NCBI RefSeq assembly: GCF_002250625.1
Contig: NZ_NMVQ01000012.1
Coordinates: 310,001 to 374,000, forward strand
Length of the DNA: 64,000 bases
DNA from: Enemella dayhoffiae
Lineage (GTDB): Bacteria > Actinomycetota > Actinomycetes > Propionibacteriales > Propionibacteriaceae
Reading direction: 5' to 3'
Shown: positions 35,996-39,152 of the stretch, piece after piece
Layout of the letters: each line of letters begins with the position of its first letter
Numbering within the stretch: position 1 is the first letter of the stretch
Program-made: the position numbers and the translations under genes
Notes under the pieces: model-generated
What the model was told of the DNA's origin: nothing
The model's input: only the letters and a program-made list of their open reading frames with translations
Database searches by the model: none

Positions 35996-36081
35996 GGGGT
36001 CGAGCCTAGCGAGCGTGACCGACCGGCACCTATTCGTCCCAGCCGCAGAACCCGATCGGGGGTCTGACGCGTCGGTTGGTC

Positions 36082-36936
36082 ATGCAGTCCCGCCAATCCG
36101 TGTCTCGCCGCGCCCTGTTTGCCGCCGGGCTGGGTGTCGCCGCGCTGACCGCCTGCGGTCGATTCGGCGACGCCCCTCCCCCCGCCGGTCAGCCACCCGG
36201 CGTACGCCTGCTCGCCGAGTCGCCCGGCAGGCACGTGACCGCTCCCGTGGAGTTCTGGTCCGGCGCCGAGCAGGTGCGCTGGGCCCTGCGGCACCGCTTT
36301 CACTGGGAACCGGACCTGCTCGCGACCCTCGACCCCGATCAGCACGCGATCCTTGGCCTCCCCTACGGCGGTTGCGCCGTGCACAGCCCCCGGCTGGTGG
36401 TCGACAGCACCCGGGTCGCGGTGGCGTTCCGGCGGCCCGAGGATGACGGTCGGCAGATCGACTGCGTCGCCCACACCTACCGCACAGCCTGGTTCCTGGC
36501 TCCCTGGTCGGTCCTGCCACAGTCCTTCTCCGTCGCCTCCCCCCGCTCACCCGAACTGCGGGTGCACGATCGGGTTCGGGTGTCTCCGCTCGAACTGCGT
36601 GCGCTGCGGTCGACCCAGCTGGCCGTTGAGCACCCCAGCAGACTCGCGCCGGTCACCGACCAGGCGGAGTTCGAGCGACTCCGCGGCGCCGGCCTGCTGG
36701 ACAACGTGAGCTGGACCGGACGGGAGGGACTGCTGTTCCAGGCGGTGGTATGCCTCAGCAGCTCACCCGAGAGCCGACCGGTGCACCTGGTGCTGGATGG
36801 TGAACGGCTGCACCTGTCCGGGGCGACAAGCCGCACCGAGGGAAAGGCGTACGAGCTGGTCTGGGACGTGCCGGCGGTACTGCTGCCCCGCCAGGTGCTG
36901 CTGGAGGGTGCCGGCGCCCCCCTCCAGGTGCGCTGA
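36082..36936 (+). CDS. Putative Tat-type lipoprotein of unknown function
   Basis: 284 residues from the ATG at 36082. The signal peptide is SVSRRALFAAGLGVAALTAC: a twin-arginine (SRRALF), a hydrophobic core and a lipobox LTAC with Cys about 29, followed by a Pro-rich linker. The mature part shows no motif I recognise; two Cys (GGCAVHSP, QIDCVAHTY) could form a disulphide. It is on the opposite strand between mshC and the SCO1664-type gene, interrupting a usually compact neighbourhood, so it may be lineage-specific. It ends 6 bases before the facing gene. Confidence 0.75.
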   Translation: MQSRQSVSRRALFAAGLGVAALTACGRFGDAPPPAGQPPGVRLLAESPGRHVTAPVEFWSGAEQVRWALRHRFHWEPDLLATLDPDQHAILGLPYGGCAVHSPRLVVDSTRVAVAFRRPEDDGRQIDCVAHTYRTAWFLAPWSVLPQSFSVASPRSPELRVHDRVRVSPLELRALRSTQLAVEHPSRLAPVTDQAEFERLRGAGLLDNVSWTGREGLLFQAVVCLSSSPESRPVHLVLDGERLHLSGATSRTEGKAYELVWDVPAVLLPRQVLLEGAGAPLQVR

Positions 36937-36942
36937 GTCGGT

Positions 36943-37737
36943 TCACAGCGGCGGCCACGGGATCGACGGCCAGCCGCCCCGCGGCAGCGGGAAGTGTCCC
37001 TCATCGAGCAGCTCGGCACAGCGCAGCTCGTACGCCACCACCTCGTCGGGGGTGATCAGCTCACCGAGCTCATCGACCACGGCCACTGCGTCGCTGACCA
37101 GTTGCCGTTCGGCCTCGGTCAGCTGCTCCCCACCCCAGCCCCACAGCACCGTCCGCAGCTTGGGATCGGTGTGGAAGCAGAGGCCGTGGTCGACCCCCCA
37201 GGTGCGGTTCGGCGTACGCAGGATGTGCGCACCCTTGCGGTCGGCGTTGTTGATCACCGCGTCGAACAGCGCCATCCGGCGCAGCTGCGGGTCGTCGGCG
37301 TGCACCACCGCCACCGGCCGGTCGTGCGCATCCACCCCCTCGACGACCTCGAACCAGCCCTCGGGCACCCGGCCGGCCGGCACAAGGTCGACCGGGTCGT
37401 CCAGCTCGGCGGTCCCGTCCTCGCCGTCGCTGACCTCGATCCACCGCTGCAGCGATCCCGGACCGAGCGGGCCGTCGACGATCACAGTTTCCGGGACCAG
37501 GTCGAAGCCGGCCGTCGCCGAGACCTGGTACGCCGCCAGCTCGCGCTGGGCGAGGGTGCCATCGGGGAAGTCCCACAGCGGCCGCTCCCCGCGCACCGGC
37601 TTGTAGACGCACAGCATCGGGTCGCCCCCCGGCGGGGTCAGCTCGCACAGGAAGGTGGCGTTGGAGGCCTGCACCAGCCGTCCGGTGACGGTCAACTCGG
37701 CCCCGGACAACCGCGCGGCGAAACTGGGCTCACTCAT
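36943..37737 (-). CDS. SCO1664-family protein, PI3/4-kinase-like fold
   Basis: 264 residues. The family landmarks are the Lys motif LCVYKPVRGERPLWDFPDGT, the putative catalytic loop DAVINNADRKGAHILR and the putative metal loop WGVDHGLCFH. These parallel the Lys, D-R-x-x-N and DFG elements of PI3/4-kinase-like folds, with deviations (Lys-Gly-Ala-His in the loop, DHG for DFG). It is restricted to actinobacteria and belongs to a conserved trio with DUF3090 and a histidine-phosphatase gene, all present here in order. The substrate is unknown; a metabolite or protein kinase is an inference. Confidence 0.88.
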   Translation of the reverse strand: MSEPSFAARLSGAELTVTGRLVQASNATFLCELTPPGGDPMLCVYKPVRGERPLWDFPDGTLAQRELAAYQVSATAGFDLVPETVIVDGPLGPGSLQRWIEVSDGEDGTAELDDPVDLVPAGRVPEGWFEVVEGVDAHDRPVAVVHADDPQLRRMALFDAVINNADRKGAHILRTPNRTWGVDHGLCFHTDPKLRTVLWGWGGEQLTEAERQLVSDAVAVVDELGELITPDEVVAYELRCAELLDEGHFPLPRGGWPSIPWPPL

Positions 37738-37750
37738 GGCCGATTCCGGG

Positions 37751-38347
37751 TCAGAACAGCGGCCGCCGATAACCGTTGGCGCGGGGGCAGATGTGACCGT
37801 CCGGGTCGATCGGCTGCAGGCAGAACGGGCAGGCCGGCCGCCCGGCGGCGATCAGCGCCTGGCTACGGGCGACGAAGTCGCGGGCCACGGTGGGCCGGAT
37901 CCGCACCACCAGCACCTCGCCGGCGCGCTCGGCCTCGGCCTGGGCGGCCTGCTCGGCGGAGGTCTCGTCGTCCAGCTCGAGCTCGTCGTCGTCACCCTCG
38001 GTCACCGAGAACATCTCGATCACGATCTTCTGATCCGCCGGATCCCAGGCGATGGTCATCGTGCCGACCCGGAACTCCTCGGTGATCGGGGCGTCCAGCG
38101 GCTGGTTGTCGTGCGCCACCTCGCGTTGCGGTGGTACCTGCACCATGCCGCCGGTCAGCCGGCCGACCTCGCCCAGCACCCGGTCGAGGTGCTCGGCCAG
38201 CACCGACACCTGCTGCTTCTCGCAGGCGACGCTGGTCAGCCGGTTGCCCTCGCGCGCCTGCAGGAAGAAGGTGCGATCACCCGGCTCGCCGACCGTACCG
38301 GCGACGAAGCGGTCAGGGGTGTCGTAGCGATGCTCGACGATGGCCAT
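37751..38347 (-). CDS. DUF3090 family protein with C-terminal zinc-type motif
   Basis: 198 residues. It starts MAIVEHRYDTPDRFVAGTVG (family MSRQVHxFDxPDRFVAGTVG-like), with an acidic linker (DDDELELDDETSAEQAAQAE) in the middle. The end, PACPFCLQPIDPDGHICPRA, gives C-x2-C-x9-H-x-C, a likely single zinc site, and closes with NGYRRPL. It is the middle member of the actinobacterial trio; spacing is 13 bases to each neighbour, so this is one transcript. Function unknown. Confidence 0.9.
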   Translation of the reverse strand: MAIVEHRYDTPDRFVAGTVGEPGDRTFFLQAREGNRLTSVACEKQQVSVLAEHLDRVLGEVGRLTGGMVQVPPQREVAHDNQPLDAPITEEFRVGTMTIAWDPADQKIVIEMFSVTEGDDDELELDDETSAEQAAQAEAERAGEVLVVRIRPTVARDFVARSQALIAAGRPACPFCLQPIDPDGHICPRANGYRRPLF

Positions 38348-38360
38348 ACGGTCAGCCTAC

Positions 38361-39152
38361 TCACTGCCCCGCGGTGGGGCTGTTCCCTTCCAACCGGGGC
38401 GGAGGGTCGGTGGCTTCGTCGGCCGGGGCGGTGGTGCTGCCGACCGGGGCCGTCGGGCCGGGTTGCTGGGCGTGGGCGCCGAGGCCGCCGCCGACCGCGG
38501 CATCGGGGTCGCCCTCGGCCGGCGGGATCAGCGAGGCCAGCGGGCCGGTGGTGGAGTTCATGGTGACCACGTAGGGCCGGCTCTCGGTGTAGCGGATCAC
38601 CGACACCGAGGCCGGGTCGACCATGATCCGCTGGAACGAGTCGAGGTGCAGCCCCAGCGCGTCGGCCAGGATCGCCTTGATCACGTCCCCGTGCGAGACG
38701 GCCAGCCAGGCCGCCCGGTCACCGTGCTCGGCGTGCAGCCGGCGATCCCACTCCCGGACGGTGTCGATCGCCCGCGCCGACAGCTGGGTGAGCGCCTCGC
38801 CGCCGGGGAAGCGGGCCGCCGACGGTTGCCGCTGCACCGTCTGCCACAGGTCGTGGCTGGCCAGCTCGGTCAGCTTGTGCCCGGTCCACTCGCCGTAGTC
38901 GCACTCGGTCAGCCCGGGCTCAAGGGCCGGGGTCAGCCCGCGATCGCCGAGCAGCAGCTCGGTGGTCTGCACGCAGCGCTGGATCGGCGAGGTGACCACC
39001 GCGGCCAGGGGTACGCCCGCCAGGCGCTCCCCCACCGCGCGGGCCTGCTCCTGCCCGGTCTCGTCGAGCTCGACGCCCTCGGCCCGCCCGGCGAGTACGC
39101 CGGCGGTGTTGGCGGTGGAGCGGCCGTGCCGGACCAGAAAGAGGGTCGTCAT
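38361..39152 (-). CDS. Histidine phosphatase, MSMEG_4193 family (probable phosphomutase/phosphatase)
   Basis: 263 residues. The phosphohistidine motif is FLVRHGRSTANTAG; other catalytic residues lie in SPIQRCVQTTELLL, ECDYGEWTGHKLTEL and AVSHGDVIKAILAD (second His). After about residue 200 the protein continues into a Pro/Thr/Asp-rich flexible tail ending SPTAGQ, longer than the catalytic core needs. It is the first gene of the trio. Named a probable phosphomutase by family; phosphatase activity is equally likely. Confidence 0.9.
   Translation of the reverse strand: MTTLFLVRHGRSTANTAGVLAGRAEGVELDETGQEQARAVGERLAGVPLAAVVTSPIQRCVQTTELLLGDRGLTPALEPGLTECDYGEWTGHKLTELASHDLWQTVQRQPSAARFPGGEALTQLSARAIDTVREWDRRLHAEHGDRAAWLAVSHGDVIKAILADALGLHLDSFQRIMVDPASVSVIRYTESRPYVVTMNSTTGPLASLIPPAEGDPDAAVGGGLGAHAQQPGPTAPVGSTTAPADEATDPPPRLEGNSPTAGQ

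What the first reader, a model, noticed from the sequence alone, without database searches (positions are those of the whole stretch)
36943..39152. Conserved kinase-like / zinc-motif / histidine-phosphatase trio beside mycothiol synthesis: candidate undescribed system
Three co-directional genes with 13-bp gaps encode a PI3/4-kinase-like SCO1664 protein (putative catalytic D-R-K-x-x-H and D-H-G loops), DUF3090 with a C-x2-C-x9-H-x-C end, and an MSMEG_4193-type histidine phosphatase with a flexible tail. Families of this trio travel together in actinobacteria and no function is known to me. Seen: motifs and spacing. Known: co-occurrence. Inference: a phosphorylation/dephosphorylation cycle with DUF3090 as adaptor or substrate, possibly tied to thiol or cell-wall metabolism (mshC and uppP flank it).
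Basis: partly seen in the sequence, partly recalled or inferred. Interest (0 to 1): 0.62.

Follow-up and report, generated by a model that had tools for sequence, protein, structure and literature searches.

The report
Actinobacterial kinase–phosphatase–zinc-protein trio
Three neighbouring genes, kept together across most of the actinobacteria, encode a protein with the fold of lipid- and secretory-pathway kinases, a matching phosphatase and a small zinc-binding protein; together they look like an unexplained phosphorylation switch whose target nobody has found.

Summary
Three co-directional genes with two 13-bp gaps encode TIGR03848, DUF3090 and SCO1664 proteins, all well above the curated cut-offs. 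One small error: the zinc motif is C-x2-C-x8-H-x-C, not x9.

The co-occurrence is real. In 197 genomes of the phylum, 81 of the 82 with DUF3090 also have SCO1664. The exception ends at a contig edge. Gene order is constant while the flanks change. The clearest losses remove all three genes, though one deletion could do that because they are linked.

SCO1664 is predicted to have a PI4-kinase-II/FAM20-type kinase fold (Z 17.9). Its ATP-site residues are invariant, except that the metal-binding Asn is an invariant His. The phosphatase keeps its full catalytic set. DUF3090 is predicted to have a PUR/Whirly-type fold (Z 9.6) with a zinc tail. That is a fold-level match only.

DUF3090 is dispensable: two transferred loci keep the phosphatase–kinase pair without it, so it cannot be the only substrate. 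The thiol link is not supported: 38 of 82 trio genomes have no MshC above the CysS level.

Best reading: an opposing kinase/phosphatase pair acting on an unknown substrate, with DUF3090 as an accessory protein. Substrate, catalysis and complex formation were not tested.

The parts
36943..37737 (-). SCO1664-family protein (TIGR03843), predicted PI4KII/FAM20-type kinase
   Evidence: 325.5 bits vs 172.4 cut-off; AF2 model of the orthologue in L008: PI4KII-beta Z 17.9, 231 residues, rmsd 3.9
37600..37602 (-). K46, beta-3 lysine of the ATP site (Y-K-P)
   Evidence: 0.99 conserved in 150 sequences
37540..37542 (-). E66, alpha-C glutamate
   Evidence: 1.00 conserved
37225..37242 (-). catalytic loop D166-R-K-x-x-H171; the His sits where PI4KII has its metal-binding Asn
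   Evidence: D, R, K and H all 1.00 conserved; aligned to N-T-D-R-G-N-D-N of PI4KII-beta
37183..37191 (-). D183-H-G185, DFG-equivalent
   Evidence: D 1.00, H 0.95, G 0.99; aligned to D-N-G of PI4KII
37751..38347 (-). DUF3090 protein (TIGR03847, PF11290)
   Evidence: 225.9 bits vs 117.25 cut-off; 214.8 bits to PF11290
37841..38323 (-). predicted PUR/Whirly-type fold, residues 9-169
   Evidence: AF2 pLDDT 90.7, pTM 0.81; human PURA Z 9.6, 112 aligned, rmsd 3.1; top five entries all Pur-alpha
37787..37831 (-). zinc motif C173-x2-C176-x8-H185-x-C187
   Evidence: 0.99-1.00 conserved in 135 sequences
38361..39152 (-). MSMEG_4193-family histidine phosphatase (TIGR03848, PF00300)
   Evidence: 310 bits vs 203.85 cut-off; R8, H9, R59, E83, H154 at 0.98-1.00
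38364..38537 (-). variable C-terminal tail of the phosphatase, residues 206-263
   Evidence: outside the TIGR03848 match, which ends at residue 205

Best explanation
The trio is an ancient, chromosomal actinobacterial phosphorylation module. SCO1664 binds ATP and metal and phosphorylates an unidentified hydroxyl group. The MSMEG_4193-type histidine phosphatase removes that phosphate through a phosphohistidine intermediate. DUF3090, a PUR/Whirly-type fold with a zinc knuckle, helps target or regulate the pair but is not essential to it. Shown here: fold prediction, invariant catalytic residues, fixed gene order, joint presence and joint loss, and a phosphatase-kinase pair that survives without DUF3090. 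Inferred: catalysis by SCO1664, action of both enzymes on the same substrate, and the role of DUF3090.
For: Kinase fold and ATP-site residues. Phosphatase catalytic set intact, and the M. tuberculosis orthologue Rv2135c is an acid phosphatase without mutase activity (PMC3866925). SCO1664 and DUF3090 shared in 81 of 82 genomes in the phylum sample, with a TIGR03848-type phosphatase next to them wherever the contig reaches; in the class sample 139 of 140. All three missing together in complete genomes of family f80 and genus g207. The trio keeps its order in deep branches where the flanks change. DUF3090-SCO1664 median gap 3 bp, 26 of 124 with a 4-bp overlap. In family f69 DUF3090 is unlinked but still retained in eight genomes. 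G413 and G008's second locus keep phosphatase plus kinase without DUF3090.
Against: No activity of SCO1664 has been measured. G246 keeps the phosphatase and DUF3090 but has lost the kinase cleanly from between DUF3090 and mshC, so these two can outlive it. Rv2135c turned over small phosphate esters only weakly, with Km near 10 mM, so its true substrate is unknown. The linked genes can be lost by one deletion. Several single-genome absences are draft assemblies, where one missing contig would look the same. The metal-site His is unusual for an active kinase of this clan.
Confidence: 0.55

Rival explanations
1. The pair makes and removes a phosphoinositide, possibly the PI3P reported in mycobacteria: SCO1664 is the missing bacterial PI kinase and the histidine phosphatase turns PI3P over.
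For: Closest fold is PI4-kinase type II and 44 of 47 relatives match PF00454. PI3P synthesis in mycobacteria has been published (Morita et al. 2010, doi 10.1074/jbc.M110.119263; citation seen, paper not held; that its turnover involved a vanadate-sensitive phosphatase is from memory). Rv2135c was found in membrane fractions.
Against: No membrane anchor or PI4KII cysteine motif is visible in the sequence. FAM20 and CtkA/HipA, with protein or sugar substrates, are also close folds. Nine of ten g207 genomes lack the trio; if g207 is Corynebacterium, as inferred, these still make PI.
Confidence: 0.12
2. SCO1664 is a protein kinase whose main target is DUF3090, and the phosphatase resets it.
For: DUF3090 and SCO1664 are the most tightly coupled gene pair and co-occur almost perfectly. 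FAM20 and CtkA/HipA relatives are protein kinases (substrates from general knowledge).
Against: The phosphatase-kinase pair persists without DUF3090. DUF3090 has no invariant Ser/Thr/Tyr; the best column, 39, is Ser or Thr in 126 of 135.
Confidence: 0.15
3. DUF3090 is a single-stranded nucleic-acid binder and the trio modifies RNA, DNA or a nucleic-acid-bound protein.
For: The only folds clearly similar to DUF3090 are PUR proteins, followed by Whirly and MRP proteins, which bind single-stranded nucleic acid. Disruption of Rv2134c, the DUF3090 gene by position, sensitised BCG to rifampicin (PMC11329110).
Against: No sequence-level link to PURA (hhalign probability 0.3). DUF3090 is acidic (median pI 4.5). 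The rifampicin effect may be indirect.
Confidence: 0.12
4. The three genes are a leftover neighbourhood of housekeeping genes with no shared pathway.
For: The class-wide block also holds mshC, uppP and an aldo-keto reductase, so some linkage is ancestral.
Against: Only the trio is kept in deep branches with different flanks; DUF3090 is retained even where unlinked; the phosphatase-kinase pair moved together in a two-gene form.
Confidence: 0.06

Closest known systems
Type II phosphatidylinositol 4-kinases (PI4K2A/B)
   Same: Best fold match, Z 17.9 over 231 residues; same order of Lys, Glu, DR loop and DxG; matching G-S-x-Q-L-F-V hinge stretch
   Different: 16-20% identity; metal Asn replaced by invariant His; no cysteine-rich membrane motif; bacterial and half the size
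FAM20 secretory kinases (FAM20A/B/C)
   Same: Second fold match, Z up to 14.6; weak sequence hits
   Different: Different position-5 metal residue (Glu in FAM20C, from memory); no secretion signal here
CtkA / HipA-type bacterial kinases
   Same: Kinase fold, CtkA Z 12.8, HipA about 10
   Different: Toxin-antitoxin or host-directed context; PF20613 score of the window protein is below cut-off
Rv2135c of M. tuberculosis
   Same: Same histidine-phosphatase type; paper places it beside uppP in actinobacteria
   Different: Only its acid phosphatase activity is known; partner genes were not studied
PUR-alpha (PURA)
   Same: Repeat topology and fold match to DUF3090, Z 9.6
   Different: No detectable sequence similarity; DUF3090 is acidic and ends in a zinc motif

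Membership tests
TIGR03843 (SCO1664 family) | score over curated cut-off | tested here: met
   325.5 vs 172.4 bits
TIGR03847 / PF11290 (DUF3090) | score over curated cut-off | tested here: met
   225.9 vs 117.25; 214.8 vs 27
TIGR03848 (MSMEG_4193 family) | score over curated cut-off | tested here: met
   310 vs 203.85 bits
Histidine phosphatase superfamily branch 1 | R-H-G motif, second Arg, Glu and second His | tested here: met
   R8-H9-G10, R59, E83, H154; PF00300 5e-51
Phosphoglycerate mutase | mutase activity | not testable with these tools
   orthologue Rv2135c has none (PMC3866925)
PI3/PI4 kinase (PF00454) | profile match | tested here: inconclusive
   44 of 47 relatives match at E up to 1 (best 9.7e-14), but the window protein itself does not
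PI3/PI4 kinase (PF00454) | kinase fold with Lys, Glu, catalytic Asp and DxG | tested here: met
   K46, E66, D166, D183/G185; Z 17.9 to PI4KII
PI4K type II | metal-binding Asn after the DR motif | tested here: not met
   His at that place in 150 of 150 sequences
PI4K type II | cysteine-rich palmitoylation motif | tested here: not met
   no cysteine cluster in the sequence
PI4K type II | phosphorylates phosphatidylinositol | not testable with these tools
   needs an enzyme assay
FAM20 family (PF06702) | profile match | tested here: inconclusive
   5 of 47 relatives match weakly, best 0.032
HipA-like kinases (PF20613) | score over gathering cut-off | tested here: not met
   10.6 vs 27 bits for the window protein
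PUR proteins | fold of two PUR repeats | tested here: met
   PURA Z 9.6, 112 residues, rmsd 3.1
PUR proteins | sequence similarity to PURA | tested here: inconclusive
   no hhalign signal against one PURA sequence; no PUR model among the listed Pfam families
PUR proteins | binds single-stranded nucleic acid | not testable with these tools
   acidic protein, median pI 4.5

The most novel reading that the evidence does not exclude
SCO1664 and the MSMEG_4193-type phosphatase are the unidentified kinase and phosphatase of an actinobacterial phosphoinositide (PI3P) cycle, with DUF3090 as a regulator: a bacterial, self-directed lipid-phosphate signalling system.
Probability: 0.1. Interest if true: 0.88.

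Novelty: new variant of a known kind. Interest (0 to 1): 0.56.

Why it matters
The trio is near-universal in Actinomycetia, including Streptomyces and mycobacterial relatives, and reaches several deeper classes, yet no function was found in the papers searched here. A conserved kinase opposed by a phosphatase would be a core regulatory or metabolic switch of the phylum, and the predicted folds make the question testable with three purified proteins. An unusual invariant His in the metal site would also be new kinase chemistry.

Tried and rejected
Thiol link: rejected as a general explanation, because the trio is much wider than MshC; within the class mshC is lost together with the trio in eight genomes, which one deletion of a linked block explains. 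Mobile or defence origin: no viral relatives of the kinase (the DUF3090 alignment could not be scanned), one real plasmid hit and one doubtful phage record, no strong PADLOC match. Conserved promoter or terminator in the window: nothing beyond chance. Direct sequence homology of DUF3090 to PURA: no signal. Solved structures by sequence: nothing for DUF3090. Complex prediction: the stop-codon read-through DUF3090-SCO1664 chain folded well in both parts (pTM 0.66), but no interface scores or coordinates are returned, so contact between them is undecided. Mirror-tree test: partial correlations 0.36-0.48 after correcting for mshC and uppP, consistent but uncalibrated. Proteasome link: no proteasome family among the window proteins scanned; not profiled.

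Full report
What is there. Three minus-strand genes at 36943-39152 encode, in transcription order, a histidine phosphatase (263 aa), DUF3090 (198 aa) and an SCO1664 protein (264 aa), with 13 bp between each. All score well above the NCBIfam cut-offs. The zinc motif is C-x2-C-x8-H-x-C. mshC lies on the same strand but behind an opposite-strand gene of unknown family (36076-36936), and uppP is divergent, so in this window neither shares an operon with the trio. The genome holds one SCO1664 gene; the nearest relative found is a Propionibacteriaceae MAG (L002).

Co-occurrence. In a sample of 197 genomes of the phylum, SCO1664 is found in 82, one of which (G165, 9e-4) is marginal. DUF3090 is in 82, and the two share 81. 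The exception, G163, has DUF3090 ending five bases before the end of its contig. A TIGR03848-type phosphatase lies beside them wherever the contig reaches. In 148 genomes of the class, SCO1664 is in 139 and DUF3090 in 140, with 139 shared. Order is phosphatase-DUF3090-SCO1664 in every deep-branch locus that holds all three, while no other neighbour is kept across them. Among 124 distinct loci the DUF3090-SCO1664 gap has a median of 3 bp and 26 overlap by 4 bp. These counts are not phylogenetically independent.

Loss pattern. Family f80 (six genomes, three of them in one contig) lacks all three genes and MshC. In genus g207, inferred to be Corynebacterium from its family, genome size and the C. 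glutamicum control, nine of ten genomes lack all three. G214, G295, G103, G039 and G193 also lack all three, but these are drafts and a missing contig could mimic that. Because the genes are linked, one deletion can remove them together. Two facts do not depend on linkage. In family f69 DUF3090 sits far from phosphatase-SCO1664-mshC in eight genomes and is still kept. And G413, like G008's second locus, has phosphatase plus SCO1664 and no DUF3090; their kinases group together (97/96) inside a clade of non-class genomes, which points to transfer of a two-gene form. G246 has lost only SCO1664, from between DUF3090 and mshC.

Mycothiol. MshC over the cut-off occurs in 18 phylum-sample genomes, all with the trio. 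A further 23 trio genomes have an MshC-like hit of 345-446 bits and three are borderline, leaving 38 of 82 with nothing above the CysS level. G193 and G039 have MshC-like genes without the trio. A review had noted that SCO1664 is invariably linked to mshC (PMC4255298); that holds for many class genomes but not for the phylum, nor for all class loci fetched.

The kinase. A profile of 47 relatives finds PI4KII-beta in the PDB at 1.7e-5, and 44 of the 47 match PF00454, although the window protein alone does not. An AlphaFold2 model was made of the L008 orthologue, as part of a stop-codon read-through chain with DUF3090; mean pLDDT is 87.8 and most blocks of both folded parts are above 90. Its kinase part matches PI4KII-beta at Z 17.9 (231 residues, rmsd 3.9), then FAM20 at 14.6, CtkA at 12.8 and HipA near 10. 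K46, E66, D166, R167, K168, H171, D183 and G185 are 99-100% conserved in 150 sequences. H171 stands where PI4KII has its metal-binding Asn. An ATP site is therefore likely; activity is not shown.

The phosphatase. R8-H9, R59, E83 and H154 are 98-100% conserved. Rv2135c, the M. tuberculosis protein of this type, is a tetrameric acid phosphatase with weak activity on small esters and no mutase activity (PMC3866925).

DUF3090. Its own model (pLDDT 90.7, pTM 0.81) matches Pur-alpha structures at Z 9.1-9.6, clear of the next entry at 7.0; Whirly and MRP proteins follow at 5-6. Those families bind single-stranded nucleic acid. There is no sequence-level signal and DUF3090 is acidic, so binding is only a lead. 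No Ser, Thr or Tyr is invariant; column 39 is Ser or Thr in 126 of 135. Reported phenotypes are thin: Rv2134c insertions sensitise BCG to rifampicin, MSMEG_4192 insertions are enriched after dibucaine, and MSMEG_4192 appears in a ClpC1 interactome. Both are taken as DUF3090 genes by position, not tested here.

How it most likely works. SCO1664 phosphorylates an unknown hydroxyl target, the histidine phosphatase reverses it, and DUF3090 targets or tunes the pair. The pair without DUF3090 argues against DUF3090 as sole substrate. The most exciting reading that the data do not exclude is a phosphoinositide cycle, given the PI4KII-like fold, the restriction to actinobacteria and published PI3P in mycobacteria (Morita 2010, cited; not readable here). 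I rate it about 0.1.

Limits. No complex geometry was available. Genus and family names behind G handles are inferred.

Noticed in passing
L182:5305-8757, L199:4641-9021; also L025, L034, L036, L043, L048, L054, L056, L058, L062: A chelatase/MoxR-like AAA+ ATPase and VWA protein pair recurs within about 8 kb of the trio in several class lineages, in at least three arrangements, and flanks both two-gene loci that lack DUF3090.
   Followed up: partly
L203:8426-10309, L204:8240-10092, L205:7664-9644, L206:8197-10495: In family f69 the DUF3090 gene away from the trio lies directly downstream of ferrochelatase, with a short-chain dehydrogenase gene further upstream in at least three of the four; possibly one relocation event.
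   Followed up: partly
window 36076-36936 (+): A predicted lipobox protein between mshC and the trio on the opposite strand, with no Pfam or NCBIfam match over cut-off.
   Followed up: no
L074: A record named Vibrio cholerae strain 35D carries an actinobacterial-type trio; likely mislabelled or contaminated.
   Followed up: no
MT835969.1:2118-3387: A 14.9-kb record filed as a phage from human faeces encodes DUF3090 and SCO1664 side by side; likely a bacterial contig.
   Followed up: no
G129, G016, G124 and about 20 other genomes outside the class: MshC-like proteins of 345-446 bits, below the MshC cut-off and well above CysS, in genomes outside the class; possibly divergent mycothiol or another thiol.
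   Followed up: no
L162:10427-11599, L173, L174, L179, L180, L191, L194: A DUF6183 gene follows SCO1664 on the same strand in families f28 and f43.
   Followed up: no
L025, L034, L047, L048, L062: Saccharopolyspora, Halopolyspora and Umezawaea loci have DUF3090-SCO1664 without an adjacent phosphatase; whether it lies elsewhere was not searched.
   Followed up: no
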